This document shows, piece by piece, positions 6,498-37,480 of a stretch of 39,262 nucleotides of DNA. The stretch is from contig JABMQQ010000208.1 in the NCBI GenBank assembly GCA_013202495.1, positions 1-39,262 of the forward strand. The letters run 5' to 3'. The translations under genes were made by a program, and so were the position numbers. The notes beneath the pieces were generated by a model. It had not been told where the DNA came from. It did not search any database and saw nothing but the letters and a program-made list of their open reading frames with translations. This DNA comes from Fidelibacterota bacterium. GTDB taxonomy: Bacteria; Fidelibacterota; UBA8477; JABMPR01. Numbering within the stretch: the stretch's first letter is position 1; each line of letters opens with the position of its first letter.

Positions 6498-6499
6498 AC

Positions 6500-7105: not shown

Positions 7106-7120
7106 ACAATCCTCATTCAT

Positions 7121-7158: not shown

Positions 7159-7194
7159 ATTTGCCCCATACCAATAATTTTATTAGTAGCTCTA

Positions 7195-12190: not shown

Positions 12191-14110
12191 TTACTTCACT
12201 GAACGAGCATATTTCATTAGTTGTTTAGATGCCAGTTTTAGGAGAGTCATGCTGAAGCCTTCTGCAAGTAACATTTCCACAGTTGCGGTGACTACGAGAG
12301 GATTCTTTCTCCGTACACCATTATTAAGAATAAATTTATTTCGCGCCGCTTTTTCGTGGGTATCCCAATTTGCATCTCCAGTTTCTTGAATAATTTCGTC
12401 CATGATTCTAGTTTTCCACATGACGAAATTATTTTCGAGGATGTTTGTCTCCTGGATAGGTTCAAGACTCGAAGACAATAAATTAAGCAGACATTGATTA
12501 TCCCTGATTTGGTTGTTTAGAGAATCCTTACGATCGCAATCGCCATCGAAAACTGTGAACGTTGGTAAACCTAGCCCTTTTGCTATGGCCAAGGGTCGGC
12601 TCATATTGGTCTTTCCATCGCAAACGACAAAGTGACAGCCAAGTCTTCGAAATTCATCCCATTGATCGGTACAACGCAAATACGTTGAGATAAAAGCCAC
12701 ATCTTCCGCACCCTCAACCAAAACAGGGATGGTGCAAAAAAATAATTCAGACTGCGATGGTTGCATAATTTGCTCAACGGCGGCCATCACCTCCGTTGGC
12801 TTCTGTGGCTGATCTCCAAGCGCCTGTGATAACATATCCGCAAGATCAGTGTATTTGACTTGTGATACGCTACTACCCTTAATTGTCGGTCGAGTTCTAA
12901 CCAATCGTATATTCTCGTAACCACGACTACTAACAAAATACGGGCTGTGGGTGGTAATAATAATTTGTGAATCGTGAGTAGAAAGGATCTCTAAAAGAGA
13001 AGCTAAATGCTTTGCCTGTGGAGGGTGTTGATACAACTCAGGCTCTTCAAATCCCAATAGGAGTGTCGGCAAGTCACCTTCACCCGTTGTGGCTAAAACT
13101 CTAAGTAATGCAATCAAAAACGAACGTTGCATTCCATGTCCTGACCGTACTAGTTCACCTAAGAAGTCACCTTCACCAATCTTCGCCCTGGCATAGGGTG
13201 AAGCAAGTGATACTGATTTTTGATCATCGAAATGCCATGCTAGCTCTACCTTAGCTCCAGAATGGGACCAATTCTTCAACTGAGATTGAATTTTTTCACT
13301 AACATCTTTCAGTACTAAATCTTGATCGCTAATAAGTTTCAGATATTGTGAGTTTGTCTGTTGGCGGAGAGCTTCTATAGGTTCAGCAAAGTCTATTTCG
13401 GATCGAATGGTTCTCTGGAGTAAATTGCCTAATGCACTATTACGTTGTTCATCTTGTTCTTCCGTTGGATCCTTTACCGCCGGTAAATAAACCCAGCTAA
13501 TATGTTTCTTGAGTAAATTGGCACCTTTACTCCAGCCATAAAATTGAGTGGGGCTTTCTATGTCTTCGCATAGCTCTAAATTATTTTCTTCGTACTCCCG
13601 TAATGCTGAACGCATGGCGTCTTTTGTGGTAACTAATGGTAGTTCAGGAAATGATGATCTTATACCGGCATAAATTCCTTTTAGCTCTGCGGCCAAAGCC
13701 TTTGCCTCCTCAGCTTGGAAATATGGAACAAAATCGTTCATGATTTTTCGGATACCATATTGTTTTACTTCAGCTCTTAGAGATGTTGGATTCCATTCAG
13801 CTTTGACAGTAACTGCCAATTGACCATGACGAGCGTATGCTTTTAGATCCTCTTTTGCTAGCTCAGACAATTCCTCAAATATGCATATAATTTCGATCGG
13901 TTGGCTGGTATCTCGATTGTGGAAATCTTCCTCTTGAAGATTCACAACATCAGAAGGAGCTTCTGAATTCCTAAAAAAGATATTAAGGGCCATCAATACC
14001 GTTGATTTTCCAGCACCATTGGGTCCAACAAAACATGAATATCGATCAATTGCAATTTCTTGGTTTTTGAAACATCTGTAATTCTTGATGGTGATTTTTA
14101 ATAGACGCAT
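12191..14110 (-). CDS. OLD-family ATP-dependent endonuclease (AAA ATPase plus TOPRIM)
   Basis: A 639-residue protein with an ABC-type ATPase in the first two thirds: Walker A GPNGAGKS (29-36), GHGMQRSFLIALL as signature region, LLGFEEPELYQHPP as Walker B, and ITTHSPYFVS as the switch. A TOPRIM nuclease domain follows, seen in PVLVEGAEDVAFI and, after it, TVFDGDCDRKD. This is the architecture of P2 Old and of GajA-like nucleases. No UvrD-like gajB lies next to it, so a Gabija call is not supported. It has its own strong ribosome site (AAGGAG, 8 bases before ATG) and gaps of 172 and 39 bases on either side, so it may be a later insertion into the cargo operon. Confidence 0.85.
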   Translation of the reverse strand: MRLLKITIKNYRCFKNQEIAIDRYSCFVGPNGAGKSTVLMALNIFFRNSEAPSDVVNLQEEDFHNRDTSQPIEIICIFEELSELAKEDLKAYARHGQLAVTVKAEWNPTSLRAEVKQYGIRKIMNDFVPYFQAEEAKALAAELKGIYAGIRSSFPELPLVTTKDAMRSALREYEENNLELCEDIESPTQFYGWSKGANLLKKHISWVYLPAVKDPTEEQDEQRNSALGNLLQRTIRSEIDFAEPIEALRQQTNSQYLKLISDQDLVLKDVSEKIQSQLKNWSHSGAKVELAWHFDDQKSVSLASPYARAKIGEGDFLGELVRSGHGMQRSFLIALLRVLATTGEGDLPTLLLGFEEPELYQHPPQAKHLASLLEILSTHDSQIIITTHSPYFVSSRGYENIRLVRTRPTIKGSSVSQVKYTDLADMLSQALGDQPQKPTEVMAAVEQIMQPSQSELFFCTIPVLVEGAEDVAFISTYLRCTDQWDEFRRLGCHFVVCDGKTNMSRPLAIAKGLGLPTFTVFDGDCDRKDSLNNQIRDNQCLLNLLSSSLEPIQETNILENNFVMWKTRIMDEIIQETGDANWDTHEKAARNKFILNNGVRRKNPLVVTATVEMLLAEGFSMTLLKLASKQLMKYARSVK

Positions 14111-17852: not shown

Positions 17853-19146
17853 CTAAGCTTCCTGACTCCCCATTATCCGAAAGAGGAGAAAAGTCTGGGT
17901 TGCTTTCAGTTTTGACCGAGATTCCAGAGATCAGATCATTCCATGCAACTTGCTCATTTTGTTCAAGCACAGCCATCAAGTCCACGAAGGCAGTAACTGT
18001 ATTACGGGGAGTTCGAAAATAAGCATCACCTATTTTCTTAGAACAATGTTCCATGAAGGCCTTCAAGCCATCATCAGGGAGTAAATATCCACTGGGATCC
18101 CCAAATGCATAAACATGTCTTAGTTTACCAAGGAGAACGTATATGTCTTCGGGTGATAGATTTGATAGTCGGATTACAGGTCCTGTTAAATCAACTAGCC
18201 CCTCTCTAGCAAATGTATTTTCGGTAAGACGTGATTGGAGTGCTTGATAGCTATATAAACCCTTTCGGGTATCCATGAGAAACTCAGGTGTACCACCCAG
18301 AAGAAATCCTAATCCATTGGCAGTACCTTGAAGAGAATCATTCAGAATTCGAAGAATTTGTTCGTAATTAGAATTACGTGCCCTCGTATTCGCCAGCTTG
18401 TACAAATTGACCAACTCATCGAGGCAAACCATCAAACCACTATAGCCACTCAATTTGACAAATCTGGCAAACAGTTTTATATGGTCATATACATTTGAGT
18501 CATCAATGATTGTTCTTACTCCGAGAGCAATCCTAGCATCCGTCTTTGTTGAGAACTCACCACGTAGCCACCTGATGGCACTAGATTTTAGTTCTTCATC
18601 TCCTGTATCGTATCCTCTCCAGTAAGCAGATATCACTTCAGCAAAATCATATCCCCCCACCATCTCAGATAACACTTGAAGCCTTTTTCGAATCACAATT
18701 TCAGGTGATAAACCATCCGCCCTTGATTCTTGTAAAGCAGACGTGACAAATCTTTCAATTACGCTGGGTAAAGCCTCGCCATCAGGTTTGGAACGAGTTG
18801 AGAGATTTCTCATAAGCTCTCTATATAGAGAACGAGCTTGGCCATTCGTCGCATGTAATCTTCGGTCTGGATTTAAGTCAGCATGAACCGTGACGAGCTT
18901 TTTCTCTAGAGCAATAGAGCGGATTAGATTGAGAAAGAAGGTTTTTCCAGATCCAAATTCACCAATAATAAATCTAATACCCGAGCCCCCATCTGCAATG
19001 CGTTCAACATCATTAAGAAGTGCCTTTACTTCAGGTCCTCGACCCACTTGGATATGCTTTTGTCCTGACCGTGGAACGACTCCTGCACGGAGCGATTGAA
19101 AAATGGTATCACGTACTCGTGGGCGAATTTTAAGTTTATCTGTCAT
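17812..19146 (-). CDS. sngB: BrxD-like P-loop ATPase, DUF2791 type (Shango SngB-like)
   Basis: A 444-residue AAA-type ATPase of the size of BrxD proteins. The N-terminal part includes VPRSGQKHIQVGRGPE, where many family members have a similar lead-in. Walker A is GEFGSGKT (62-69), and Walker B LMVCLDE (238-244) is followed by LVNLYKLAN. GFLLGGTPEFL, a sensor-like segment, and ENTFAREGLVDL follow. The start overlaps the TerB gene stop as ATGA, and the end overlaps the helicase gene, so the three products are made in step. In BREX type 2 the same ATPase-helicase pair is BrxD-BrxHI. Here no pglZ, pglX or brxC is present, while a TerB-domain protein is, which fits Shango better. Confidence 0.82.
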   Translation of the reverse strand: MTDKLKIRPRVRDTIFQSLRAGVVPRSGQKHIQVGRGPEVKALLNDVERIADGGSGIRFIIGEFGSGKTFFLNLIRSIALEKKLVTVHADLNPDRRLHATNGQARSLYRELMRNLSTRSKPDGEALPSVIERFVTSALQESRADGLSPEIVIRKRLQVLSEMVGGYDFAEVISAYWRGYDTGDEELKSSAIRWLRGEFSTKTDARIALGVRTIIDDSNVYDHIKLFARFVKLSGYSGLMVCLDELVNLYKLANTRARNSNYEQILRILNDSLQGTANGLGFLLGGTPEFLMDTRKGLYSYQALQSRLTENTFAREGLVDLTGPVIRLSNLSPEDIYVLLGKLRHVYAFGDPSGYLLPDDGLKAFMEHCSKKIGDAYFRTPRNTVTAFVDLMAVLEQNEQVAWNDLISGISVKTESNPDFSPLSDNGESGSLDDMEDDELTSFKL

Positions 19147-21374
19147 GAGAAATACTCCTTAACTAAATCCATCTCGACTTCAATCGGATCGTCTCCCTCT
19201 AAGAGGGGTTCATCGCAAAGTTCGTAGGCTGCATCATTCAGTATGTCTAATGCTCCATCTGGTAATAATCCATGGCGTTCTGCAAGAATTTCAAACTCAG
19301 ACCTTCTCCACTCAGATTGTTTAACCAATTCACGCAAAAGTAACGAATGGGCTGGGTCTAGCGGTCCTATTGTGTTTTCCTTCTGTTGATCACTAAGAAT
19401 AGGTACCTCTTCGGGTTCTTCTTCATCGAAAATATCCCCAAGAATTTGTGTAACTGTGGCTGTTTCCTCAAGTTTTGCCCGCACAATACTCATATCGAGG
19501 TCTACACCGTTCTTCTGTATTTGCTCTATATTAACCTCAGAAGGTACCTTGAAACCATGTTGATCATCACCAGCTTTTTGTATTGTCACTGGAGCATCCG
19601 GAATGTTACCTCCACTCATCATTGAATGGATATGTGTAAAAACCTCGTCTTCACTATATCCTAACATTGGGTACAGCTTGTTTAGGATTTTGATTTCTGA
19701 CGGATCTATGTGACCATCTGCACCTGCTACTCCGAGACAGAAAGCGGCAATTGAGCTTTTTTCACTCGCTTGCAAGGACTCAACCCTCTTCTTCATCCCG
19801 GCTAGTCCGGGTGGGTCATAAAGCAGCCAATCGAGGTGAGCTTTAATTCGTTGTTTTTCACCTTTTGATAGTTTGAGTGCTTTCTCAACGTGTGCCTCTA
19901 AATAATCACGCTCAGACTCGGCAACAGTCCCATCGATACCTGAAATTATTGCTGCAAGTCGTAATAGAACGGTGGCAGCTTGATATTCCTCTGTAGGCAC
20001 TTTAGGAGAGTTCTTCTCTAAGGAAAAGATGATAGCCTTGCCAATTGCTTTTAGATTTGTCCCTCCAAATCTTGGATCGGGTTCGAGGCCATGCCCAAAT
20101 TTTTCAAGTAAGTGAGCTAAGGCGACAGACTCTTTCTTTGAAAGTCCCGCAACATCAGTATCAGTCCAAAGTGCTATTAGCTCGGATGCATCAACAGCTG
20201 TTTGCTGATTATCTCCAAGCTTGTCCGATATCCAGTTCTTGATACTATCTGCAGCAGGATTGGTTTTTGTTTCAATCAGTTCTAGTGGCAATAAACCAAA
20301 AGCCTCTAAACTCCCCTCTTGGTCTGGATTCCTGCCAAGATATCTACTCATTGGATCTAACAAGTCAGTACAATCCTCAATGATTTTTCTGAGCTTATTG
20401 ACTGGTCCTGTCACCCGACTAATATCTGGAAGGTCACCACATGGAATTTTTACTTGGCCAATTCCGTGGCTAGCAGGGTGAATGCTAATATTCAACCTTG
20501 ATTTATTAGGTTTGAGCGTCATCCCATTCCCATATTTAGCGATGTACCTGATATTGAAAAGAGCTTTCAGATCATCGCCGCATCTAGTTGCTGGTGTTCT
20601 TAGTCTTGTATCAGGATGAAGCAGGATCCAAGAATATGCCCATGCTGATGATATTGGTTTCCCTTCAGAGATAAGTTGACCTATTCCCATCCGAAGATTT
20701 ATTGGCAATTCCCATGATGTTCTCTCAATCGGTGGTGGAAAATTGTATTGCCGCTCTGGGCTCTGCATTATCTGGACAGCCTCAAGAAATCTATTCGCGT
20801 ATCCGTTGAAAGACCAATTTGAACCATATATATCAAGCAGACGCTTTACTTCAAACGTAATCTCAGAAATTTCGGACACCGCTTGTTCAGAATTACGCGT
20901 GTCAACAAAAACACGTCGCTCCAGTCCATAGAAGAATAAAAATACATATCCAATACTGTAATTTGGATCACTTCGTCCACTGCTTAACCAATTTATATAG
21001 GCTGCACGACTAGATGGATCAATATCAGCATAACTTGGCCAATATGACATTCCAGAGCCATCTATATCGGGATTATTGAAATTAACGTTCAATTTAGGAT
21101 TGATTAGCGAGGGTTCAACACTAGAGTAACCACCTGCTGGTTGAAGGTAATTGCCAACATATAGCATGCCACCAGGTATATGCTCACCTGAAATGTTCAC
21201 AGGTTTGCCTGATGATACCCAAACAGAGTCAGGGTCAACATTTGCATACCTCTCACGATAGAAGGGCGAGTCCTCAGTTGATACTGAAACCCGTACACGG
21301 GGGCTTGAGTCCATTGAATTTCTTATGAGCAGTATAATTACGATAATTACACCAACGAACAGTAGAACTTCCAT
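19143..21374 (-). CDS. sngA: Membrane-anchored TerB-domain protein (Shango SngA-like)
   Basis: A 743-residue protein. One transmembrane helix lies at the extreme N-terminus (MEVLLFVGVIIVIILLI), followed by a TerB-N-type region (about 60-290, with YWPSYADIDPSSRAAYINWL). A middle region follows with two acidic TerB-like helical blocks (LRLAAIISGIDGTVAESE and CLGVAGADGHIDPSEI, about 475-600). A TerB-C-type end (about 640-743) closes the protein. TerB domains are named after tellurite-resistance clusters and act as metal- or membrane-linked modules. A good ribosome site (AAGGGG) lies 7 bases before the ATG. With the coupled ATPase and helicase it forms a Shango-like set, and the anchor suggests the complex works at the inner membrane, perhaps where phage DNA enters. 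Confidence 0.8.
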   Translation of the reverse strand: MEVLLFVGVIIVIILLIRNSMDSSPRVRVSVSTEDSPFYRERYANVDPDSVWVSSGKPVNISGEHIPGGMLYVGNYLQPAGGYSSVEPSLINPKLNVNFNNPDIDGSGMSYWPSYADIDPSSRAAYINWLSSGRSDPNYSIGYVFLFFYGLERRVFVDTRNSEQAVSEISEITFEVKRLLDIYGSNWSFNGYANRFLEAVQIMQSPERQYNFPPPIERTSWELPINLRMGIGQLISEGKPISSAWAYSWILLHPDTRLRTPATRCGDDLKALFNIRYIAKYGNGMTLKPNKSRLNISIHPASHGIGQVKIPCGDLPDISRVTGPVNKLRKIIEDCTDLLDPMSRYLGRNPDQEGSLEAFGLLPLELIETKTNPAADSIKNWISDKLGDNQQTAVDASELIALWTDTDVAGLSKKESVALAHLLEKFGHGLEPDPRFGGTNLKAIGKAIIFSLEKNSPKVPTEEYQAATVLLRLAAIISGIDGTVAESERDYLEAHVEKALKLSKGEKQRIKAHLDWLLYDPPGLAGMKKRVESLQASEKSSIAAFCLGVAGADGHIDPSEIKILNKLYPMLGYSEDEVFTHIHSMMSGGNIPDAPVTIQKAGDDQHGFKVPSEVNIEQIQKNGVDLDMSIVRAKLEETATVTQILGDIFDEEEPEEVPILSDQQKENTIGPLDPAHSLLLRELVKQSEWRRSEFEILAERHGLLPDGALDILNDAAYELCDEPLLEGDDPIEVEMDLVKEYFS

Positions 21375-22136: not shown

Positions 22137-22266
22137 AATCACACTCCTTCTACGACCATAGACCTGAGCCGCCTTTCATCAAAGCATCACTATGTAAATT
22201 CATTGTATCCTTCCACATTATTTTCCTAGACCAATTCCTTGCAGGTGATTACGCTCTAAGCCTTTG

Positions 22267-23085
22267 CTAGAGTCCATATCGTCTCTTCAATAAGTCATGA
22301 GCATGGAGTAATGCAGACCAATGCCCCAACCTACCGAGTGACCAAAGGAGAAGACCATATCGCTCATCCGTAAGTTCACTCACTACAAGTTTTTTTGCGC
22401 TTTTCTGGGGTATCTTGATTTTATTTATAGCTCTTAAATATGTTGCCGTTATTTTGTCGGTCGAGTCCAAATGACTCACATGCTTCATATCGATTGCGGC
22501 CAGTTTTTTGTATACAGGAATTTTATATTTTGTTGTTTCAACTATGGCCAGGATCTTCTCTAGATGGACTCCAATAATTTTCTCATCTAAATAAGACACC
22601 ACTAGTGTGTTTGCTTCTGGGTCTGAGTACTTTTCCCATGCTTCCATCAGTAATTCTCGATAAGGATCAGACCAGTTCTGCTTAAGGTAAGCGAATGCTT
22701 TACGGCGCATACCAACATGCTTATTTGTGAGTAAATATATCAAAATCTCTTTCACAGTCTCATCCGAAAATACATTTAATATTCTGTCAAGACATGTACG
22801 GATAGCACCGCGCTTTTTAGCTAATGCAGATTCATATCGATCTATTAATATTGGCCCCAATTTGTGATATTTATCCCTAGCGACATTTTCTGAAACATCT
22901 CTCTCCATTTTGTTAAGTAGAGCACGCCGAACGTTTGCATCCTGTTCATCACATACAGATAACATCTGAATCACTTCATCCGGATCCAAACAATTGACTA
23001 GAGCTGGAACGAGTGAATACTCGAACACTGATGTTCTGCTAGATGCATATTCCATAATAATTTTTGTGCGATCAACATTTTTCAT
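22267..23085 (-). CDS. Alpha-helical, HEAT-repeat-like protein of unknown function
   Basis: A 272-residue, probably all-helical protein. It has recurring helix pairs of the ARM/HEAT kind (for example DPDEVIQMLSVCDEQDANVRRALLNKM and VKEILIYLLTNKHVGMRRKAFAYLKQ). There is no catalytic motif, signal or membrane segment. It is the first gene of the minus-strand cargo block and has an extended -10 promoter about 90 bases upstream. No clear ribosome site precedes its ATG. HEAT-like proteins in defence operons often act as scaffolds or sensors, but that role is inferred from position only. Confidence 0.6.
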   Translation of the reverse strand: MKNVDRTKIIMEYASSRTSVFEYSLVPALVNCLDPDEVIQMLSVCDEQDANVRRALLNKMERDVSENVARDKYHKLGPILIDRYESALAKKRGAIRTCLDRILNVFSDETVKEILIYLLTNKHVGMRRKAFAYLKQNWSDPYRELLMEAWEKYSDPEANTLVVSYLDEKIIGVHLEKILAIVETTKYKIPVYKKLAAIDMKHVSHLDSTDKITATYLRAINKIKIPQKSAKKLVVSELTDERYGLLLWSLGRLGHWSALLHAHDLLKRRYGL

Positions 23086-23174
23086 ATGTGCAGCTAACTA
23101 TAAATATAACGTAATGCATAACATCTGTGTCCAAATGAAATTATCATTTTGAATATCCTCTATCTAAATTACTT

Positions 23175-24629: not shown

Positions 24630-24666
24630 TTAATCTCTATTTAAAGCCACTTTAAATAGAGATTAA
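24630..24666. repeat. Perfect 17-base inverted repeat at the end of the MuB-like gene
   Basis: TTAATCTCTATTTAAAG and its exact complement are separated only by CCA and overlap the muB-like stop codon. The centre contains the TTTAAA unit found at other sites of the element. There is no T run on the minus strand, so this is not a standard terminator. An RNA hairpin controlling downstream genes, or a protein-binding site, is more likely. Confidence 0.65.
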
Positions 24667-25574
24667 TCATTGTATATCATGAAGCGACCAACATCCTTCA
24701 GAAAGGGAATCGTGATATCTTCCTTACGTGCTGAAGAGGTTCTGATAGCTAGTTTCAATAATTTGGACATCTTTCTAAATGATCCACCCCACTTATCATT
24801 GATGACATGATCCCACAAAAACTTGTGGATGTCTGTATTTGTGATACCGTAGCTCTTGGCCACAAGTTTGATATCCTCAAATTCTGGATCTGCGAGGGTT
24901 AGCTTCACACCCAAGCGGCTATATAGCTGAGCAAAGAACTCCGCTTCCTTTCCCATCATTTTTCTGCTTAAGCTGGGTTGTCCCAAATAGACCACACCAA
25001 CACCAGCCTGATCATGAATAGATCTGACGATCTCAAGTGAATCATTTGTGAGGAATTGAGCCTCATCGATAATGAGTAGCCTGTCACTACCCTGTAAGGC
25101 TTTAACGGACATTTGAAATTGTTGATAAATACTCATCCTGGTCATTAGTTCAAGATCTTGGGCGATGGATGAGATGATGACTCCCCTTGAAAATCCTTTG
25201 AAGGCTGTGATCATGATGGTATCGGGATGTTTTGTGGCATATTCAACAGCTGTTACTGTTTTTCCCAATCCAGGAGTACCGTAGACAACGCCCATATCAT
25301 TATGGGTATGGCAGTAGTTGAGGACATCCATTATTTCTTTTGAGATCTCTGTGTCAACAAAGTGCTCATCTACTGAATATGTTTGTCGGCTGTATTCTCG
25401 GGTGAGAAATGCTTCCAATCGTTTCAATAAAGATTTTGATTTATCCTCATACTTGCCATTCAACCATAAGCTCAAAGTTGTAGGAGATATCCCAGCAGCT
25501 CTTGCGACCACATTCTGCGACTTGCCTGAATACTCCATATAATCAATGAATAATTCACGGACTGTATTAGCCAT
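24663..25574 (-). CDS. MuB-type AAA+ transposition ATPase
   Basis: A 303-residue protein. Residues 1-60 hold a helix-turn-helix (KSQNVVARAAGISPTTLSLWLNG), as in Mu B. The ATPase follows, with Walker A GTPGLGKT (99-106) and Walker B LLIIDEAQ (166-173). In Mu, B binds target DNA, activates the transposase and gives target immunity. A frame open further upstream could add 14 residues, but the ATG at 25574 has AAGGAG seven bases before it and overlaps the end of the preceding gene, so it is the start. It belongs to the minus-strand operon after the transposase and its stand-alone DNA-binding paralogue. A perfect inverted repeat overlaps its stop codon. Confidence 0.9.
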   Translation of the reverse strand: MANTVRELFIDYMEYSGKSQNVVARAAGISPTTLSLWLNGKYEDKSKSLLKRLEAFLTREYSRQTYSVDEHFVDTEISKEIMDVLNYCHTHNDMGVVYGTPGLGKTVTAVEYATKHPDTIMITAFKGFSRGVIISSIAQDLELMTRMSIYQQFQMSVKALQGSDRLLIIDEAQFLTNDSLEIVRSIHDQAGVGVVYLGQPSLSRKMMGKEAEFFAQLYSRLGVKLTLADPEFEDIKLVAKSYGITNTDIHKFLWDHVINDKWGGSFRKMSKLLKLAIRTSSARKEDITIPFLKDVGRFMIYND

Positions 25575-26049
25575 TAGTTCGCTCCTTCTGCTTGACTTCC
25601 TGAAGCATTCGCTCAAGTTTCTTCCTGTCCCTCACATCTTGAATTTTCTGATTCTTTTGGATTCTCTTAAATGCTCTGCGAAAAGTTGCATAGCTTATGG
25701 GCTCTTGTTGTAGAATCTCGCAAAAGTGCAAATATTCATCTCGATGAAGTGCCATGAGGTTGGGGCTAGGATTTTTTCGATAAGCTTTATGCAGAAAATC
25801 TACTTGAGCTTCTGACATCTTTGATTTACCACTTCGCCTCTTAGACATTTCATCTACTAAACCCGCTAAACCTCGCTCACGGAAAGCGGTTGACCAACGT
25901 GAGATCGTTTGACGTGACACACTCAATTTCTGACAGGCTTCCTGCTTGGTGTAGCCTTGCTTTTTTAGGGAGGTGTATTGGTCCAGAATTCTGACTCTGT
26001 TTTGAACAACTTTGCATTCGCGTCTATAGAGATCGGAGAGAATAATCAT
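25567..26049 (-). CDS. Stand-alone paralogue of the transposase DNA-binding region
   Basis: A 160-residue protein that lines up without a gap with residues 1-130 of the neighbouring transposase. By hand count about 62 of 130 positions are identical, including ILDQY (21-25), TISRWS, SKRRSGKS (69-76), HR.EYL.FC and SYATF. It therefore has both helix-turn-helix parts but no DDE catalytic domain. It ends in a basic, coiled-coil-like tail (RDRKKLERMLQEVKQKE). It shares one base with the transposase stop (TAATG) and overlaps the MuB-like start, so it is made together with both. It may regulate or compete for transposase sites, or be a structural partner in the transposition complex. I know no Mu counterpart in this position. 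Confidence 0.85.
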   Translation of the reverse strand: MIILSDLYRRECKVVQNRVRILDQYTSLKKQGYTKQEACQKLSVSRQTISRWSTAFRERGLAGLVDEMSKRRSGKSKMSEAQVDFLHKAYRKNPSPNLMALHRDEYLHFCEILQQEPISYATFRRAFKRIQKNQKIQDVRDRKKLERMLQEVKQKERTNG

Positions 26050-27635
26050 TAGTTCACGCTTTCATCATTTTTGGAGAATGACATTTCTTCCAGTGGGATC
26101 TGGGGGACAATACCAGTGATACGCTGATAGTGCTCACGCGTAACTTCTCGCCTGATCTTTTTAGAACTGGCCACCATTGCATAGTCTTCTCCAGTAGCTT
26201 CTGTTGGATGGTTCTTGCCTCTGAGAGGTGCTCCACAGATAAAGGTTCCCTTTGCATCATAGAGGTAGATTTTTGAAATCTCACCTGAGGCATTCTTATC
26301 GGCAGGATCAAAACGCAAGACAACACGCTTGCCTTCCATCTGGTTGATTAATAACAAATCATGGTAATAGTAGTTCTTCCGAAAGTGCACACCGTTGGAG
26401 TGAACCTTGTAAGTCTTACCCTCAACTCGCATCATGAGCATTGTCAGATCCTGCTCTTCAACCATCTGTTTCCAGGTCTCAAATAACTCATAGTCAAAGC
26501 TCTGCTCAAACACAGCTTCTGGTGTCAAGTCCTTTGATTTGAACTGAGCATTTAGGCCGGAATGGTCATGCTGGTTGTACGTCTCAAACATGATGTCAAC
26601 CACATCTGGGACTTCCTCCCAAGTGAGTAATCTGCCTGGATCCAGTTTCTTTTTCTGACCCTTGACCTTGACCCCCGTCTGCATATACTCTGGTTTGTCA
26701 TAGACATTGGCCCCGGTGTAGCCATACTTTAACAGTCTGGCCTGATTGTGGATATAGTTGTGAGCTGGTTCAATGGGTTTGGCTTTAGCGTTGTAGGGTG
26801 TTGCGAAGATGGGTTCGATATGCAGGATGGGGAAAATTCCCTTAATCATGGTCTCGTCTTCCATGATCTCCAGTTTACTGGCCACCTTACCATCAGCGTT
26901 CACACCTTGGAGAGACTTCGATTTGTAATCCTTACCATTATCCAGGTAAGCTTGATTAGGTGTACCGTACGCTTTGATCGCATGTAATAGAGATACTCTG
27001 ATAGTATCCTGATTGGGCTTTAATGTAACCATCCAGGATAGAGCTTTGCGGCTGTGACCATCCATCCACCAGGTAACCCACGGTCTGACCTTTTTCCCAG
27101 CGTGATATACAAAGAAGTTTAGCTGTACATGATCACTAAAAATCACATCCATTGGTTTGACCAAATTCCAATCCCTGATATGAAAAGGATTTGAGTCGGC
27201 AAAAGCTTTGGAGCCTTTGCGATACATGATCTTGACACTCTCAGGAATGTTGTTGAACTCTTTTAAGAATGTTGAATAGCTAACTGGTTTCTGACTCAGG
27301 GAGGCACAGAACTGCAAATATTCTTCTCTATGGATAGTCATTAGCTTTGGTTGATGCTGGGTTAGGGTTGTTCTGTACAGGAAGTTCTTTTGATCGTCAG
27401 TCATAATGGATTTGCCACTACGTCGTTTTGATTTCTTATCAGCTAAGCCCACCATTCCTTTGTTTTCAAGTGCTCTGGACCAGCGTGAGATCGTTGGATT
27501 GGAGTATCCCACCTCTGCGCAAGCTTCAGCTACCTTGTACCCTGAATCCCTCAGACCTTGATACTGATCTAGAATGTCAGCCCGTTTAATGGCTACGTCG
27601 CGTTCACGGTCAGTGAGATCTGAGAAGAGAGTCAT
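26049..27635 (-). CDS. MuA-type DDE transposase
   Basis: A 528-residue transposase. Residues 1-130 form the DNA-binding region with helix-turn-helix motifs (VAEACAEVGYSNPTISRWSRAL). The retroviral-integrase-like core follows with D168 (VIFSDHVQL), D232 (AYLDNGKDY) and E289 (AKPIEP), the expected DDE triad. A mu-C-terminal-like beta barrel runs from about 385-490. The spacing and the phrase VRPWVTWWMD...SRKALSW are typical of Mu-like phages and transposons. All three catalytic residues are intact, and no frameshift is seen, so the enzyme is probably active. The start overlaps the upstream 65-aa gene (ATGA). Confidence 0.93.
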   Translation of the reverse strand: MTLFSDLTDRERDVAIKRADILDQYQGLRDSGYKVAEACAEVGYSNPTISRWSRALENKGMVGLADKKSKRRSGKSIMTDDQKNFLYRTTLTQHQPKLMTIHREEYLQFCASLSQKPVSYSTFLKEFNNIPESVKIMYRKGSKAFADSNPFHIRDWNLVKPMDVIFSDHVQLNFFVYHAGKKVRPWVTWWMDGHSRKALSWMVTLKPNQDTIRVSLLHAIKAYGTPNQAYLDNGKDYKSKSLQGVNADGKVASKLEIMEDETMIKGIFPILHIEPIFATPYNAKAKPIEPAHNYIHNQARLLKYGYTGANVYDKPEYMQTGVKVKGQKKKLDPGRLLTWEEVPDVVDIMFETYNQHDHSGLNAQFKSKDLTPEAVFEQSFDYELFETWKQMVEEQDLTMLMMRVEGKTYKVHSNGVHFRKNYYYHDLLLINQMEGKRVVLRFDPADKNASGEISKIYLYDAKGTFICGAPLRGKNHPTEATGEDYAMVASSKKIRREVTREHYQRITGIVPQIPLEEMSFSKNDESVN

Positions 27636-31203: not shown

Positions 31204-32052
31204 ATGAAACTTATCAAAATCAGAAACAAGCTGGAGCTAACCCAAACTGAATTCGCTGGTTTATTGGGGGTTGATAGAACATCGCTTTCAAATTACGAGT
31301 CTGGCAAAACAGAGATTCCTCGATACATTGAGAAATCAGTCTTCGCGATATTTTTATTAAATGAACGCAATAAATTGTCGGATGGTAACATTTCTGAACC
31401 TGACACCAATTTCGATAGTAGAGATTATTTAAAAAGTATTCGTCAATCACGAAAAATGTCACAGACAGATCTCGCAGATGAACTTGGCATAAGTCGTGTA
31501 TCTCTGAGTGATTACGAAACTGGTAAAACAGAGATTCCGCTCTATGTAAAGATCGCTTTATTGAACATCTTTCCACCCGACGATAGCAAAGAGGTAAACA
31601 CATCGGAGGAAAAGATAGCTATTATCCCACTTGTCACAGATGAATGGAGTGACACTGAAAGGCTGAAAATAATCCGTATGGATTTAGGTGTTTCAATTGT
31701 GAAAATGGCTAAAACTCTAGGATTATCAGAAGAGACCTACAAAAGTTATGAGGACGGGGATCGTCAACTTCCAACCAGTGTACTTAGGGATTTCTTGAAC
31801 CTTGGATATAGTTTGAACTGGTTGCTTACTGGGGCTGGTTCCTTTAAAGTTTATAGCGAGATAGTTGATCCTGACCAGGTTGACCAACTGGCTCATTATT
31901 TCTTACAAGATGACTATGACAAATTGAGACTCAAATTTCTTGAATTGACTAACATAATGAATGAGACTCGGGAAAGATTGATTCCAAATTATAAGTTGAT
32001 TGAAGAAAACGAAAAGAATAAAAAGAAGCAAGCGAAACTGAACAAAAAGTAG
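31204..32052 (+). CDS. Repressor with three tandem XRE helix-turn-helix domains
   Basis: 282 residues. HTH 1 (about 3-45) reads RNKLELTQTEFAGLLGVDRT. HTH 2 (about 75-118) reads RQSRKMSQTDLADELGISRV. HTH 3 (about 152-205) reads RMDLGVSIVKMAKTLGLSEE and ends with NWLLTGAG, a common end of phage repressor domains. HTH 1 and 2 are close relatives (SLSNYESGKTEIP and SLSDYETGKTEIP), so one arose from the other. The gene is divergent from the early operon, as c is in Mu. There is no ribosome site; the ATG follows TATTATTATTT directly, so the message may be leaderless. Three DNA-binding units in one chain suit the long inverted operator. Confidence 0.8.
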   Translation: MKLIKIRNKLELTQTEFAGLLGVDRTSLSNYESGKTEIPRYIEKSVFAIFLLNERNKLSDGNISEPDTNFDSRDYLKSIRQSRKMSQTDLADELGISRVSLSDYETGKTEIPLYVKIALLNIFPPDDSKEVNTSEEKIAIIPLVTDEWSDTERLKIIRMDLGVSIVKMAKTLGLSEETYKSYEDGDRQLPTSVLRDFLNLGYSLNWLLTGAGSFKVYSEIVDPDQVDQLAHYFLQDDYDKLRLKFLELTNIMNETRERLIPNYKLIEENEKNKKKQAKLNKK

Positions 32053-32179: not shown

Positions 32180-33319
32180 ATGGTTCTAAAAATCTTAAAT
32201 CTATATAATTCATTAAAGAAGTTACTCTTTCCCGTGAAGGGTATGCTAGAGAGGGGTTCCTTTGACAAATTATTCTGGGATGCTGCTCGAGAAGTTGATC
32301 CAAACTTCGAGCAATCCGCTGATAATCAAGACCTTATCGAAAAAGTAGTAGACAGAACTGCACCCAAATTGGTCACTCTTCTCGAGGAAGAGCTGAGAAT
32401 TGGCTCAAAGTGGAACCTGTGGGAGCGCAGGAGAAATATTAAAAAATTCAAGAAGCGTCTACACAGAGGTTGGGGAGTCGCGATCGACCAGCTAGAAGCT
32501 TTCATCGGATTAAATCTCGAATACGGAGTTGTAGTCTCTGAATCATATAGAAGCTCACATGAAGAGAATACTAAATATGAGGTTTTTCTAAGATTACATG
32601 CAAGGTCATGTCAGGTAGCGTATGAAGTACTTGAACTCATCAAAGGCGGCTTTGCAAACGGAGCCTTGGCTAGATGGCGTACGATATATGAAATCTCTGT
32701 CCTGATAAGATTCCTTACAGATAAGCCTGTTGAATTGACTCAAAGGTATCTTGATTATGGTATTGTCGAAAACCATAGGGAGATTCTCGAGTTTCAGAAG
32801 AACCACAAAAAATTAGGGCTCAAGGCAATTTCCGCGGAAGAGATTAAAGAATCACGTGATGATTTTGAAGCCCTTAAAAAGAAGTATGATAATGATTTTG
32901 TTAAACCATATGGTTGGACTGGTGCATACCTGTCTGATAAGAAGAGACGTTTTTCAGGCATGGAAGAAACAGTTGAATTCAAACACCTACGATCAATTTT
33001 CAAGATGGCGAATAATAGCATCCATTCTGGCTCTATGGGATTCCTTCGTGTATTGGGAACATATAACCAAGGTGAGGTAATGTTGGCAGGTCCGAGCGAC
33101 TACGGATTTTCTGATCCAGGACAATACACAGCCTTCTCATTGTTTCAAGTCTCAATGACACTATTTGATTTTGCACCGCTATTGGAAGATGAGATTTATA
33201 TTCAATTGGGTGAGAAATTGATTGATGGGATAATACGAGATTTTGATGGTATACAATCACAGATAGATCTTGAGCGAGCAAATGAGTTGAAAAATGATCC
33301 TACTAAGGGCAATAACTAA
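32180..33319 (+). CDS. DUF5677-type protein, possible defence gene
   Basis: 379 residues. The segment LHARSCQVAYEVLELIKGGFANGALARWRTIYEISVLIRFL (about 142-182) and a later NNSIHSG are the hallmarks of DUF5677 proteins, a helical family of unknown activity often found in mobile and defence regions. A basic helical N-terminus precedes it. No ribosome site is found at the first ATG; internal starts at 32243 (ATG) or just before (GTG) are possible. It lies between the repressor and the integron cassettes and is outside the cassette boundaries, so it is a separate cargo gene. Confidence 0.65.
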   Translation: MVLKILNLYNSLKKLLFPVKGMLERGSFDKLFWDAAREVDPNFEQSADNQDLIEKVVDRTAPKLVTLLEEELRIGSKWNLWERRRNIKKFKKRLHRGWGVAIDQLEAFIGLNLEYGVVVSESYRSSHEENTKYEVFLRLHARSCQVAYEVLELIKGGFANGALARWRTIYEISVLIRFLTDKPVELTQRYLDYGIVENHREILEFQKNHKKLGLKAISAEEIKESRDDFEALKKKYDNDFVKPYGWTGAYLSDKKRRFSGMEETVEFKHLRSIFKMANNSIHSGSMGFLRVLGTYNQGEVMLAGPSDYGFSDPGQYTAFSLFQVSMTLFDFAPLLEDEIYIQLGEKLIDGIIRDFDGIQSQIDLERANELKNDPTKGNN

Positions 33320-33669
33320 TAATTGATATTCATTTCATAAGAATCAAAATCAGCTCCCCAATAATCATTTAAATAGGGCATTAATCCACGTTTAAATAGT
33401 GTCAAATATTTCTCGTTCATTTCAAGACTCGACACAAACCAGATGACCACCATCTCTATCAACACTTGATTAAATAGCGCAACAGACTACATTTAAGTAA
33501 TTCACTGTGGGGACATATCCAGGTCATCTTATACGGTCAACATAAAATCCCAACAATGAAATGATATGGGGGTATTACATTGATTATCAGAAACTTACAA
33601 GAACAGTCAAAAAGTGTTAATCGGGCGTTTTGATGCAATGTTCATCTTATACGAGACCGTATAAATACT
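33320..33669. other. Gene-free stretch with repeats, upstream of the cassette array
   Basis: No gene seen. It contains TTTAAAT-type sites near 33369, 33388 and 33472. TTATACGGTC at 33529 has an exact inverted copy GACCGTATAA at 33655. TCATCTTATACG occurs directly repeated at 33524 and 33642. The first cassette begins at 33670 with GTTATGTG. Direct repeats just before a first cassette recall an integron attI site, but no integrase gene is present in the window. Confidence 0.45.
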
Positions 33670-33723
33670 GTTATGTGTTTTCAAATTGGCCTAGTAATTA
33701 ATTTTGATAGGGGATAATAGCAG

Positions 33724-35541
33724 ATGAAAATCAAATCATTTAAAATCACAGATTTCAAGCCTATTACCAATATGAGTATCGATAATTTAGGAAGTGTCGT
33801 CATTATTGCAGGGGCAAATGGTTCCGGCAAAACTCGATTAAAAGCGGCAATTGTTAGTACTTTACAAGGCAATGCTTCCATGGATATTACTATAGAGGCG
33901 ACGAGACCTGAAGAAGAAGCTGAAAAATATTTTAACGGCAAGACTATTGAGGTTAAAAAGGGACAACCGAATAATATTCTCAACAATTATATCAATAGCC
34001 GTAAATATGGTTCCGGGCGTTATGTCGGATCCTTAGTCCAAATTGATTCCAATAGGAGTATTCAAACCTTAAGGTATAGTGCAGTCAATTGGCTAGGAGG
34101 GGATCCCGACGATACAGAGTCTGCCAGTAATTTTTACTTTAGCCGATTTGCTGATAGATGGCAAAATTTTATTACCTACATACATCAGAAATCAGCTGCA
34201 CGTGACAAGAAGCTTGCAGATCAGCTCAAAAAAAATCCCAGTACTGGAGAGAAGATAATCGAAGAAAACCCCAACCCATTTGAGAAGTATAAAGCAATAT
34301 TTTCTAGCTTACTGCCAGGCAAGGATATTCTTGAAATTGATCCAGCAAAACCCCAAGAATTTCATTATACAGATGAGTCAAAGCAAAGCCTGCCTTTTAG
34401 CACTTTGAGTTCGGGTGAACAGGAGGTAATCAAGGTTCTATTCGATGTTGCACAAAAGGAAATCCGACATTCCGTAATCATAGTTGACGAACCTGAGCTT
34501 CATTTGCACCCGACTCTTACCTTCAAACTCATTGAAGAGCTTAAAGCTATCGGTGAGCATACAAATCAAATTATTTTTTTAACACACTCCGCAGATTTGA
34601 TATCGACATATTACTCAACCGGTGATGTTTACTTTATTGACTCTTTGCAGACAGGAGAAAATCAGGCGCATCGTCTAAGTGACCTAAATAGCACCCACCA
34701 TCAAATTGTAAAACTTGTCGGGCAAAACCTTGGCCTCTTCGCCGTCGGGAAAAAACTAGTTTTTGTTGAGGGGGAAAATTCTAGCATTGACAGAATAACA
34801 TATCACAGAATTGCCCATACTATTGATCCTGAGATCAAGATAATCCCAGTGGGTTCAGTATATAATATTCTTACACTAAATAGTATAGAAGAACAAATTC
34901 GGAGTTCAATCTTTGGCATCGATATTTTTATGGTAAGAGATCGTGACGGTTTAAGCGATAGCCAGATTGAAGCAATTGAGCAATCGGGTAGAATTAGATG
35001 CCTAAAAAGAAGACATATCGAAAATTACTTTCTTGATGAAGATGTGCTTTTTCGGGTAGCAACTCAATTGTATTTGACAGAAATAAACACTGATCTTAGT
35101 GTGGAATTTATTCAGCGCGAAGTTAAAAGAATCGCTGAAGAAACATTGGCTTTTAACCTCTACAAAAATACAAAAGAGTACCTAAATCAAAACTACAATT
35201 TAAAAGCACCAAAAGTTAGATCTGTTGATGCTAAAACCATGGATGAAGTAAAAGACGAATTGAATCTAGATATTCAAAACAACTTGACCGACCTTGCAAG
35301 CAGGATGAAACCGGAAAATATTAAAACTTGGTTAGACGAAGAGGAAACACGGCTGAGGGAGATGCTGGAAAATGGCGAGTGGAGAAATTATTTCCAAGGG
35401 AAAATACTATTTGCAAAGATTTGTTCGGACGTTCTAAAGGACGATCAGCTGAGAATCCGACAAGCATATGTTGACCTCGCTTTGGAGGACAAACCGGAGA
35501 TATTTGATGATCTAGTTCAAATGTTTGATGCAATGAATTAG
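33724..35541 (+). CDS. AAA ATPase fused to DUF4435 (PARIS AriA-AriB-like)
   Basis: 605 residues. An ABC-type ATPase comes first: Walker A GANGSGKT (30-37), signature LSSGE (228-232), Walker B VIIVDEPELH (251-260) and switch FLTHSA (285-290). From about 340, KLVFVEGENSSID, then FMVRDRDGL (402-410), then KRRHIENYFLDED (428-440), mark a TOPRIM-like DUF4435 nuclease domain. The two-protein PARIS anti-phage system is AriA (such an ATPase) with AriB (DUF4435), and single-chain fusions are known. AGGGG lies ten bases before the ATG. The gene fills the first integron cassette. An OLD-type nuclease is the alternative; the DUF4435-like RHIENY motif argues for the PARIS reading. Confidence 0.75.
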   Translation: MKIKSFKITDFKPITNMSIDNLGSVVIIAGANGSGKTRLKAAIVSTLQGNASMDITIEATRPEEEAEKYFNGKTIEVKKGQPNNILNNYINSRKYGSGRYVGSLVQIDSNRSIQTLRYSAVNWLGGDPDDTESASNFYFSRFADRWQNFITYIHQKSAARDKKLADQLKKNPSTGEKIIEENPNPFEKYKAIFSSLLPGKDILEIDPAKPQEFHYTDESKQSLPFSTLSSGEQEVIKVLFDVAQKEIRHSVIIVDEPELHLHPTLTFKLIEELKAIGEHTNQIIFLTHSADLISTYYSTGDVYFIDSLQTGENQAHRLSDLNSTHHQIVKLVGQNLGLFAVGKKLVFVEGENSSIDRITYHRIAHTIDPEIKIIPVGSVYNILTLNSIEEQIRSSIFGIDIFMVRDRDGLSDSQIEAIEQSGRIRCLKRRHIENYFLDEDVLFRVATQLYLTEINTDLSVEFIQREVKRIAEETLAFNLYKNTKEYLNQNYNLKAPKVRSVDAKTMDEVKDELNLDIQNNLTDLASRMKPENIKTWLDEEETRLREMLENGEWRNYFQGKILFAKICSDVLKDDQLRIRQAYVDLALEDKPEIFDDLVQMFDAMN

Positions 35542-35552
35542 GTAAAAAGAAA

Positions 35553-35676
35553 CACATAACAAAGGCTTAGAGCGGACTCACACGAAGAGAAGTGGAAGAC
35601 AAAAATGATGTGGAGGGATACAATTATCGAACAAAGCGAGTCTGTTTCGGGAAGCAGCTCAAGCCTAGCGTTAGAA
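35553..35676 (+). other. attC recombination site of cassette 1
   Basis: It begins with R'' CACATAAC and ends with R' GTTAGAA (from 35670). The inner arms AGGCTTAGAGC and GCTCAAGCCT, and GGACTC with GAGTCTG, pair imperfectly with unpaired bases, as in folded attC sites. The length is about 124 bases. It lies 12 bases after the stop of the ATPase gene. Confidence 0.85.
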
Positions 35677-35756
35677 TGACAAAAACAATTTCGCCCATGG
35701 AACTTTGGAATAGCTAATGTAGTTTAAGCTTCAAATCAAACCTCAAAGGGGTAGTC

Positions 35757-36377
35757 ATGATTATTCATAGAAGAATTATTGTTTTCGCAGTACTCGTTTC
35801 CGTGTCGTTTGCTGGAACCTATCCATCATTCTCAATCCGACTTGGCGGTGCTCGACCATCTCATTTTGACAATCGATGGGAAATCTGGAATCCTGGTAAT
35901 TGTTATACAGGTGAGCTCTCTGTAGCGCTTTCGGAAGGCGTGACCTACAGTCTCCTGATGGGAAATTGCTCCTTTACCTTCAATGAGAACTATCTGACTA
36001 GTTCTGATCCTGGATACATGAGCGCGAGCGGAAAGTATCAGAGAGTGGCCATTGCAATACGAACACGTCCAATAGAACATCTAGACATTAGTAAATATGT
36101 CTCTCCCTTTTTTACGAGTGGTTTCGGAACGATGACGAGAAGCGAGACTATAGATCGCTTAGGAGAGGTGGAACCGTTCAGTCTTGTGTACAAGCATGCA
36201 GTAGATTTTGCACTCTTTGGAATCGGAATTGACTTATTACCCGAAAACAGGATCAATCTCTTTTTCGAATATCGCTGGGAATATGAAATCAACCTTCATA
36301 CACAAAATCATCGGCCCGAACTAGATCCTGTGAACTTTGATTACCTTAATCTTGGATTCAAAATCAATCTGCAATAA
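35757..36377 (+). CDS. Exported beta-barrel-like protein, cassette 2
   Basis: 206 residues with a signal peptide (RRIIVFAVLVSVSFAG, cleavage near 20). The rest alternates polar and apolar residues as in small outer-membrane barrels (SIRLGGARPSHFDNRWEIW; INLFFEYRWEYEINLHT). It ends with the strand-like YLNLGFKINLQ. AAAGGGG stands five bases before the ATG. It is carried on an integron cassette between attC 1 and attC 2. I do not recognise the family. Envelope proteins are common among cassettes of environmental integrons. Confidence 0.7.
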   Translation: MIIHRRIIVFAVLVSVSFAGTYPSFSIRLGGARPSHFDNRWEIWNPGNCYTGELSVALSEGVTYSLLMGNCSFTFNENYLTSSDPGYMSASGKYQRVAIAIRTRPIEHLDISKYVSPFFTSGFGTMTRSETIDRLGEVEPFSLVYKHAVDFALFGIGIDLLPENRINLFFEYRWEYEINLHTQNHRPELDPVNFDYLNLGFKINLQ

Positions 36378-36392
36378 CTATCAGAAACCAGC

Positions 36393-36500
36393 ATTCTAAC
36401 AAGCTGCTTAAAGCTGACTCACTGAAAGGATGTGGATGGAGATAATTAATGTACAAAGCGAGTCTGTTTCAGGAAGCAGCTCAAGCGCGGTACGTTAGGC
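36393..36500 (+). other. attC recombination site of cassette 2
   Basis: R'' is ATTCTAAC and R' is GTTAGGC. The inner arms CTGCTTAAAGCTGACTC and GAGTCTGTTTCAGGAAGCAG pair with interruptions. The 3' half (AAAGCGAGTCTGTTTC) is nearly the same as in attC 1. The length is about 108 bases. The somewhat different 5' half marks it as the most divergent of the three sites. Confidence 0.83.
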
Positions 36501-36507
36501 AAACAAA

Positions 36508-36981
36508 ATGAATAGCACAATTCAGCTTACTAAAATGGACAATCAAGAATTTGATAAATTTAAAACCAGAACTATCAATTCGTATGCAAATGAAATTGTT
36601 GAAAACATTGGAATATCTGAGGAAAAAGCTTTAGCAAAATCAAAAGAGGAAACCGACTCAATTCTCAAAGATGGGATTAATACTGATAACCACATTTTTC
36701 TATCCATCTCAAAGAAGAACAATCTGGAAAACATCGGACATATTTGGATCCAATTGTATAAAGACCGGAAAGAAGCTTTTATATATCACATCGAAATTAT
36801 TAAGAAATATAGGGGGCAAGGACTTGGTGGAAAAGCTATTGAATTACTGGAAAACTATTTGAAGCAAGAAGGTATTTCAAGACTCAGACTTAATGTGTTT
36901 CAGAAGAATGTGGTAGCTAGGTCTCTCTATGAAAATAATGGGTTTCATATTACTAATGTACAAATGCAGAAAGATCTGTAA
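36508..36981 (+). CDS. GNAT-family N-acetyltransferase, cassette 3
   Basis: 157 residues. The acetyl-CoA binding loop is plain in IIKKYRGQGLGGKAIELLE (motif A), preceded by IYHIEI. Motif B follows in RLRLNVFQKNVVARSLYENNGF. The substrate (small molecule, antibiotic or protein) cannot be inferred. The ATG comes eight bases after the cassette-start GTTAGGC and has no ribosome site, which is usual for cassette genes that rely on read-through from upstream. The stop lies just before attC 3. Confidence 0.88.
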   Translation: MNSTIQLTKMDNQEFDKFKTRTINSYANEIVENIGISEEKALAKSKEETDSILKDGINTDNHIFLSISKKNNLENIGHIWIQLYKDRKEAFIYHIEIIKKYRGQGLGGKAIELLENYLKQEGISRLRLNVFQKNVVARSLYENNGFHITNVQMQKDL

Positions 36982-36987
36982 AATATT

Positions 36988-37103
36988 GCCTAACATAGGC
37001 TTAGAGCGGACTCACACGAGGGGGAGTGCAAAACGAAAATTATGTGGACGGATACAATTATTGTACAAAGTTAGTCTGTTTCGGGAAGCAGCTCAAGCCT
37101 AGC
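36988..37103 (+). other. attC recombination site of cassette 3, missing its final core
   Basis: R'' is GCCTAAC, and the inner sequence is almost the same as in attC 1 (AGGCTTAGAGCGGACTCACA; GTTTCGGGAAGCAGCTCAAG). The 3' side ends in AGCCTAGC as in attC 1, but the expected GTT core is replaced by ACACGAT. The array is therefore broken exactly at the last core site. Confidence 0.8.
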
Positions 37104-37107
37104 ACAC

Positions 37108-37404
37108 GATATCTATGATTTAAATCCTCTTTAAACGGTGTTCAAACATTTGAGGTTTTCAATACCTGATGTCCTCTCAGATGATCATTATGTGAATGAT
37201 TGTATTATATAATTCGGTTTTAAATCGATCTTTGAGACATGATTTGTATCATAAAAGTCAGAGATAGTATCATAAAAGTATCATTAAACACACTGTTTGT
37301 TCATTTAAACCTGTGTTACGGATTTTTCAATAATCGCCCACAAGTATCTAATATAACAATCGCTTACAGGCTCTTCATTTAAAGTTCTATTTCTTCATTT
37401 AAAG
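37108..37404. repeat. Right-end repeat region of the putative transposon
   Basis: This gene-free stretch holds TTTAAATCC and CTTTAAACGGTGTTCAAAC near 37120-37150. GTATCATAAAAGT occurs at 37246 and 37267, with a partial third copy at 37278, at 21- and 11-base steps. TTCATTTAAAC lies near 37300, and CTTCATTTAAAG at 37373 and 37393. The last pair is the inverted form of the pair at 7209 and 7231. It is the counterpart of the left end and probably binds the transposase. Confidence 0.5.
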
Positions 37405-37480
37405 CTACCCCCCATACTAGACTCCAATTATCATTATTATTTATCCATCAGAAAACTGTATTTGCTCAAAGGGGGGGCAG

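What the first reader, a model, noticed from the sequence alone, without database searches (positions are those of the whole stretch)
33670..37103. Integrase-less integron array with exactly matching cassette boundaries
Three attC sites, and three cases where the cassette start is the exact complement of the start of its own attC (8, 8 and 9 bases), define cassettes of about 2.0, 0.8 and 0.6 kb. Integron cassettes inside a Mu-like transposon of an FCB-type bacterium are unusual and could travel with it.
Basis: seen in the sequence. Interest (0 to 1): 0.82.

Follow-up and report, generated by a model that had tools for sequence, protein, structure and literature searches.

The report
Integron array inside Mu-like transposon
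A 30-kilobase jumping element descended from a Mu-like virus carries, besides anti-phage genes, the landing site and three gene cassettes of an integron but not its integrase gene, so cassettes could ride the transposon while an integrase encoded elsewhere in the cell shuffles them.

Summary
A covariance model built without the window's sites scores the three attCs at 136, 92 and 120 bits. Each cassette start is the exact complement of its own attC start (11, 9 and 9 bases), and across the genome this pairing beats all 20,000 permutations.

Three additions change the picture. (1) Two congeneric genomes hold the empty site. Window 7197-37416 is one 30,220-bp insertion with a 5-bp target duplication (CTAGA) and TTTAAATGAAG-type inverted ends, so the array lies inside the Mu-like element, about 310 bp from its right end. 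(2) The array is led by a complete ~145-bp attI (33527-33670). The same site lies between intI and the first cassette in relatives, so this is an attI-led integron lacking intI, not a bare attC cluster. (3) The genome (Neomarinimicrobiota) has an intact intI on another contig, ~43 attCs and four further attI sites, at least three opening exact cassettes.

The element keeps Mu repressor, A and B but no virion gene, and carries Shango, OLD and SbcCD-like genes; cassette 1 is PARIS-like. The best explanation is a transposon-borne cassette platform worked by integrase in trans. Integrons on Tn7- and Tn402-type transposons are known. I found none reported on a Mu-type element: a new variant.

The parts
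7192..7196 (.). Left target-site duplication CTAGA
   Evidence: Single CTAGA in the empty site of G013:C42 (L154); two copies flank the insertion
7197..7241 (+). Left transposon end, TAT..CTTTAAATGAAGAAA..CTTTAAATGAA
   Evidence: Inverted copy at the right end; exact CTTTAAATGAA pairs occur only at the two ends
7392..12151 (-). Cargo: SbcC/SbcD-like pair (7392-10895, 10892-12151)
   Evidence: Pfam AAA_27 and Metallophos; PHROGs SbcC/SbcD-like
12191..14110 (-). Cargo: OLD-type ATPase-TOPRIM protein
   Evidence: Pfam AAA_15 and OLD-like_TOPRIM; PADLOC Old/AriA
15603..21374 (-). Cargo: Shango anti-phage system (SngC 15603-17852, SngB 17812-19146, SngA 19143-21374)
   Evidence: PADLOC SngC 1e-284, SngB 1e-182, SngA 7e-92
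22149..22273 (-). Fourth, decayed attC on the opposite strand, after a HEAT-like ORF (22267-23085)
   Evidence: Covariance model 69.6 bits, E 2.5e-14, several broken pairs
24663..25616 (-). MuB-like transposition ATPase
   Evidence: Pfam AAA_22 and Phage-MuB_C; PHROG 296 4e-69
26049..27635 (-). MuA-like DDE transposase
   Evidence: Pfam DDE_2 and Mu-transpos_C; PHROG 310 4e-86
31204..32052 (+). HTH repressor, divergent from the early operon as in Mu
   Evidence: Pfam HTH_3, three copies
32180..33319 (+). DUF5677 cargo gene, occupying the place intI has in relatives
   Evidence: Pfam DUF5677 9e-27; no intI remnant found here
33527..33670 (+). attI site; crossover at G33670|T33671; core TTATACGAGACCGTATAAATACTG|TTA at 33647-33673
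   Evidence: Aligns with the intI-to-first-cassette interval of G012:C73 and G002:C47; leave-one-out core score 39.2 against 7.3 for the next best site
33671..35670 (+). Cassette 1 (2000 bp): AriAB/PARIS-like ORF 33724-35541
   Evidence: PADLOC AriAB 1e-58; ends match over 11 bases
35550..35670 (+). attC1
   Evidence: 136.3 bits
35671..36494 (+). Cassette 2 (824 bp): protein of unknown family with a signal-peptide-like start, ORF 35757-36377
   Evidence: No Pfam or PHROG family; ends match over 9 bases
36392..36494 (+). attC2 (shorter loop arm)
   Evidence: 92.0 bits
36495..37104 (+). Cassette 3 (610 bp): GNAT acetyltransferase ORF 36508-36981
   Evidence: Pfam Acetyltransf_1 1.8e-14; ends match over 9 bases
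36986..37104 (+). attC3, right G|TT lost
   Evidence: 119.8 bits; reads CTAGC|ACACG
37374..37416 (-). Right transposon end
   Evidence: Inverted copy of the left end
37417..37421 (.). Right target-site duplication CTAGA

Best explanation
Window 7197-37416 is a 30.2-kb transposon descended from a Mu-like phage. It keeps the repressor, transposase A and ATPase B, has lost the virion genes, and carries anti-phage genes as cargo. Near its right end it carries an integron platform without an integrase: a complete attI followed by three cassettes, the first of them PARIS-like. Shown: the attC and attI sites, exact cassette ends, transposon ends, target duplication, empty site, and an intact intI elsewhere in the genome. 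Inferred: MuA/MuB move the whole unit as one piece, and an IntI made in trans from a chromosomal locus excises, inserts and reorders cassettes at the transposon's attI and attCs, so the transposon is a shuttle between chromosomal cassette arrays of the genus. The integrase was probably lost when the attI-array segment joined the transposon, or decayed afterwards.
For: Empty site: G013:C42 and G009:C26 lack everything between the left host genes and window 37417; in G013 the join is exact (7196 to 37417) with a single CTAGA. Inverted ends with paired CTTTAAATGAA motifs. MuA and MuB families; the nearest MuA relatives sit in IMG/VR viral contigs, and the closest (L240) has terminase, portal and protease. 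attC: independent covariance model, covarying stem with two extrahelical bases. attI: homologous to the intI-to-cassette interval in relatives, and in seven attI-led arrays the first cassette starts exactly at the attI G|TT with 9-11 bases complementary to its own attC. intI: full length, 446.7 bits against a cut-off of 265, with its own attI and first cassette. The genome has 43 attC matches and 5 attI cores, with none for the reversed pattern in 60 genomes. One locus (C158) shows intI decaying in front of a retained attI-like site.
Against: The resident IntI has a different attI type (47% identical to the window's attI), so insertion at the transposon's attI by that enzyme is not assured; attC x attC exchange is less demanding. 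No cassette body of this array was found in 60 relatives, so recent exchange is not shown. attC3 has lost its G|TT. The transposase is found in only 2 of 245 genomes of the phylum, so movement between hosts is not documented. The termini read TAT..ATA, not the TG..CA of Mu.
Confidence: 0.55

Rival explanations
1. Relic cargo: the attI and the three cassettes are a frozen remnant that travels with the transposon but is no longer recombined. intI was lost, the sites are decaying, and cassette 1 is kept only for its defence gene.
For: No intI on the contig; attC3 lost its G|TT; a fourth attC is decayed; the resident IntI prefers another attI type; other intI-less attI loci suggest repeated intI loss.
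Against: All three R box pairs are still exact over 9-11 bases and attC1 scores among the best sites of the genome. The attI core differs from the genus consensus at one position.
Confidence: 0.37
2. The array is a chromosomal integron next to which the Mu-like element inserted, or the contig is a chimera, so the array is not transposon cargo.
For: The genome is a fragmented MAG (255 contigs, 86% complete) and attI and attC are repeats.
Against: Both transposon ends and both copies of the 5-bp duplication flank the unit with the array inside, at a site that is empty in two relatives. A chimera would need two joins that keep the target site intact. Full-length copies of attI and attC in this genome are at most ~88% identical to each other, too different for ordinary misjoins.
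Confidence: 0.04
3. The cassettes entered the transposon at a secondary (non-attI) site, as a CALIN, by IntI acting in trans.
For: CALINs away from intI are common, for example in about half of Xanthomonas genomes (PMC12444791).
Against: The sequence before cassette 1 is a full ~145-bp attI, 85% identical to an attI-like site in G005 and 72% to one behind an intact intI in G012. A chance G|TT site would not be.
Confidence: 0.04

Closest known systems
Tn7-like transposons with integrons (10% of 6,549 examined; PMC8649781), including class 2 integrons of Tn7
   Same: A cargo-carrying DDE transposon bears an integron or partial integron, and such transposons also carry phage-defence genes.
   Different: Here the transposase is of the Mu A/B type from a phage lineage, with Mu-like repressor control, no intI, a non-clinical host phylum and no recognised resistance cassettes.
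attI-led CALIN in Shewanella prophage M16-3 (PMC9892861)
   Same: An attI heads a cassette array without an adjacent integrase inside a phage-derived element.
   Different: M16-3 is a P2-like cryptic prophage with virion genes that also carries intI. Here the vehicle is a Mu-type transposon without virion genes, delimited by a target duplication and an empty site.
CALIN (clusters of attC lacking intI; IntegronFinder, PMC9024848)
   Same: attC array without a neighbouring intI.
   Different: This array has an attI. The paper says IntegronFinder does not detect attI sites outside class 1, so attI-led arrays are filed as plain CALINs.
Mu-like transposons carrying CRISPR (CASTs; PMC11656645)
   Same: Mu-family elements turned into cargo carriers.
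   Different: No CRISPR genes were seen among the ORFs examined; the cargo is defence genes plus an integron platform.
In-line (reverse-oriented) chromosomal integrons of the same genus (G007:C51, G012:C73, own C30)
   Same: Same attC family; attI directly downstream of intI in the same orientation.
   Different: Those keep intI and are not seen on a transposon.

Membership tests
Integron cassette array (attC-bounded cassettes) | attC sites with complementary R and L boxes, an unpaired spacer and extrahelical bases on the bottom strand | tested here: met
   19-pair structure 91.3% paired, covariation above all 500 shuffles; window sites 92-136 bits with a model built without them
Integron cassette array (attC-bounded cassettes) | Cassette start complements the start of its own attC (circular intermediate) | tested here: met
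   11, 9 and 9 bases; genome-wide 0 of 20,000 permutations
Complete integron | attI site at the head of the array | tested here: met
   33527-33670 aligns with attI of intI-bearing relatives
Complete integron | intI gene next to attI | tested here: not met
   No TIGR02249 match on C204 and no remnant by tblastn; intI is on C30
CALIN | At least two attCs without a neighbouring intI | tested here: met
   Three attCs, no intI on the 39-kb contig
Mu-type transposable element | DDE transposase of the Mu A family with a Mu B ATPase | tested here: met
   DDE_2, Mu-transpos_C, Phage-MuB_C; PHROG 310 and 296
Mu-type transposable element | 5-bp target duplication and paired transposase sites at inverted ends | tested here: met
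   CTAGA twice, single in the empty site; CTTTAAATGAA pairs at both ends; that the transposase binds them is inferred
Mu-type transposable element | TG..CA termini | tested here: not met
   Termini read TAT..ATA
Mu-like phage (prophage) | Virion genes (terminase, portal, capsid, tail) | tested here: not met
   None among the ORFs searched in 7197-37416; present in IMG/VR relative L240
Active integron worked in trans | IntI recombines these sites | not testable with these tools
   Needs an attC x attI assay or read evidence
PARIS (AriAB) | AriA ATPase joined to an AriB nuclease | tested here: inconclusive
   PADLOC fused AriAB 1e-58 over residues 176-570; no Pfam domain hit on the C-terminal part

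The most novel reading that the evidence does not exclude
A distributed integron: one (or few) chromosomal IntI serves several attI-led cassette arrays scattered over the genome, one of them aboard a Mu-type transposon, so that cassettes flow between fixed and mobile platforms. Five attI cores lie in this genome (C30 with intI; C35, C88, C158 and the transposon without), and three in G012 (one with intI), each genome with one intact intI found.
Probability: 0.35. Interest if true: 0.78.

Novelty: new variant of a known kind. Interest (0 to 1): 0.63.

Why it matters
Integrons are not mobile by themselves, and the best known vehicles (Tn402, Tn7, plasmids, a few phages) come mostly from proteobacteria and clinical settings. 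Here the vehicle is of a different transposon lineage, in an uncultivated marine phylum, with its ends and empty site visible. It carries the attI as well as cassettes, so it is a mobile docking site that depends on the host's integrase. It also joins two routes for spreading anti-phage genes, fixed transposon cargo (Shango, OLD) and exchangeable cassettes (a PARIS-like gene), in one element. That attI-led arrays without intI recur in the genus suggests that some CALINs may keep working landing sites that standard software does not look for.

Tried and rejected
Single-sequence DNA folding of the three attCs gave no significant z-score; expected for long loops, so the test was moved to covariation and a covariance model. 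A first alignment mixed strands and was discarded. An intI remnant between the DUF5677 gene and attI was looked for and not found. Sharing of the cassette bodies with 60 relatives: none. The attI pattern and an attC pattern in IMG/VR viral contigs: no match. A second, decayed attI opposite the array (23095-23121, minus strand) is the best minus-strand match and sits where expected, but scores no better than shuffled sequence, so it is not claimed. A promoter scan of 33300-37420 found 20 sites against 13.4 +/- 3.6 in shuffles, so no cassette promoter is claimed. Literature searches for integrons in Marinimicrobia found nothing; the papers found for integron with Mu-like did not, in what I read, describe this combination.

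Full report
What was checked. The window is the whole of contig C204 of a 3.95-Mb draft genome (255 contigs, 86% complete). The three repeats lie where stated. Cassette ends are exact complements over 11, 9 and 9 bases. The bottom-strand consensus of 32 attCs from this genome and its genus has an R stem, an unpaired spacer, a 14-pair L stem with covariation, two extrahelical bases seven positions apart and a long variable arm. A covariance model built from those 32, with the window's sites left out, finds the three sites at 136.3, 92.0 and 119.8 bits and a fourth, decayed one on the other strand at 69.6 bits. The rule that a cassette's start complements its own attC holds across the genome beyond chance: 172 observed, 0 of 20,000 permutations.

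The array is inside the transposon. In two congeneric genomes the host DNA lacks the element. In G013:C42 window 2194-7196 is followed directly by window 37417-39240, with a 5-bp overlap. G009:C26 shows the same right-hand boundary at 37417, with its left-hand match ending at 6221. The window carries CTAGA on both sides (7192-7196 and 37417-37421), the empty site of G013 has it once, and the ends are inverted copies with paired CTTTAAATGAA motifs found nowhere else exactly in the window. The element is therefore 30,220 bp, much larger than the Mu genes suggest. From left to right it holds an SbcCD-like pair, an OLD-type protein, an exonuclease, a Shango system, a HEAT-like gene with a decayed attC, the Mu early genes with B and A, a divergent repressor, a DUF5677 gene and the integron array. 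No virion gene was found among the ORFs searched. The closest relatives of its transposase in IMG/VR are 37-66% identical, and the closest (L240) has a terminase, a portal and a head protease, so the element looks like a phage that became a transposon (inference). Within the phylum the transposase was found in only 2 of 245 genomes. The second, G013:C21, is cut by the contig end inside the transposase gene and shows different cargo beyond its repressor.

The array has an attI. The 145 bases before cassette 1 align with the stretch between the intI stop codon and the first cassette in G012:C73 and G002:C47, which carry intact intI. The core TTATACNAGACCGNATAAACANNGTTA, with up to three mismatches, occurs five times in this genome and never in reversed control form in 60 genomes. 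With the window left out of the matrix, the window site scores 39.2 and the next best site in the window 7.3. In seven attI-led arrays checked, including the window, C30, C35, C88 and three of G012, the first cassette begins exactly at the attI G|TT and complements its own attC over 9-11 bases. So the array is an integron minus its integrase gene rather than a plain attC cluster.

Where the integrase is. The genome has one intact intI found, on C30 (446.7 bits against a cut-off of 265), with the catalytic residues and the IntI-specific patch visible in its translation (read by eye), followed on the same strand by its own attI and first cassette. Its attI is only 47% identical to the window's; the window's attI is closest to those of G005 (85%) and of own C35 (77%). 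On C158 a 41-residue intI relic with a stop lies just upstream of an attI-like site, which shows one way such arrays arise; its first cassette is a weak match (5 bases). In the window no relic remains and DUF5677 stands in that place. Eleven of 19 genomes of the genus have an intI over the cut-off, so an integrase able to act in trans is often at hand. The genome is 86% complete, so a second intI in the missing part cannot be excluded.

How it most likely works. Shown: the ends, target duplication and empty site of the transposon; attI, attCs and cassette boundaries; an intact intI elsewhere in the genome. Inferred: MuA/MuB carry the unit to new sites; IntI in trans exchanges cassettes between the transposon and chromosomal arrays. 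The anatomy (an attI-led, intI-less array as cargo of a Mu-type transposon) I hold at about 0.92; the live exchange in trans at about 0.55. The mismatch between the resident IntI and the transposon's attI type, the lost G|TT at attC3 and the lack of shared cassette bodies keep the relic reading open at about 0.37.

Known and new. Integrons on transposons are well known: 10% of Tn7-like transposons carry an intact or partial one (PMC8649781). An attI-led CALIN has been described in the P2-like Shewanella prophage M16-3 (PMC9892861). CALINs away from intI are common and can be mobilised in trans (PMC12444791). I found no report of an integron on a Mu-type transposon, nor of integrons in this phylum, in the open-access library searched; subscription journals are not covered. 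Hence a new variant of a known kind.

Noticed in passing
22149-22273 (minus) and 23095-23121 (minus): A decayed attC after a HEAT-like ORF, facing the other way; the best minus-strand attI-core match of the window lies just upstream of that ORF. Possibly a second, worn attI-led cassette on the far side of the Mu genes.
   Followed up: partly
L032 (C35) 10799-10951; L224 (C88) 13760-13808; L037 (C158) 5857-5883; L221 997-1142 and L222 6386-6478 (G012:C231): attI-led arrays without intI recur in the genus. Those on C35 and G012:C231 sit among ordinary chromosomal genes.
   Followed up: partly
L030 19247-19367, L032 13517-13639, L035 5015-6740 and similar on C203, C131, C82, C45: attC-like elements whose R boxes are replaced by palindromes (CCCCGCTTAGCGGGG at one end; AAAGTTTCTCTTTTGTGG-type hairpins at the other). 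They look like a repeat family derived from attC.
   Followed up: no
25567-26049 (minus): A short ORF repeating the N-terminal part of the MuA-like transposase (46% identical), between A and B.
   Followed up: no
15603-21374, 12191-14110, 33724-35541: Shango, an OLD-type protein and a fused AriAB/PARIS-like protein on one transposon: two as fixed cargo, one as an integron cassette.
   Followed up: partly
L133 1-6100 (G013:C21): A related Mu-type element cut by the contig end inside its transposase gene, with different cargo beyond the repressor.
   Followed up: partly
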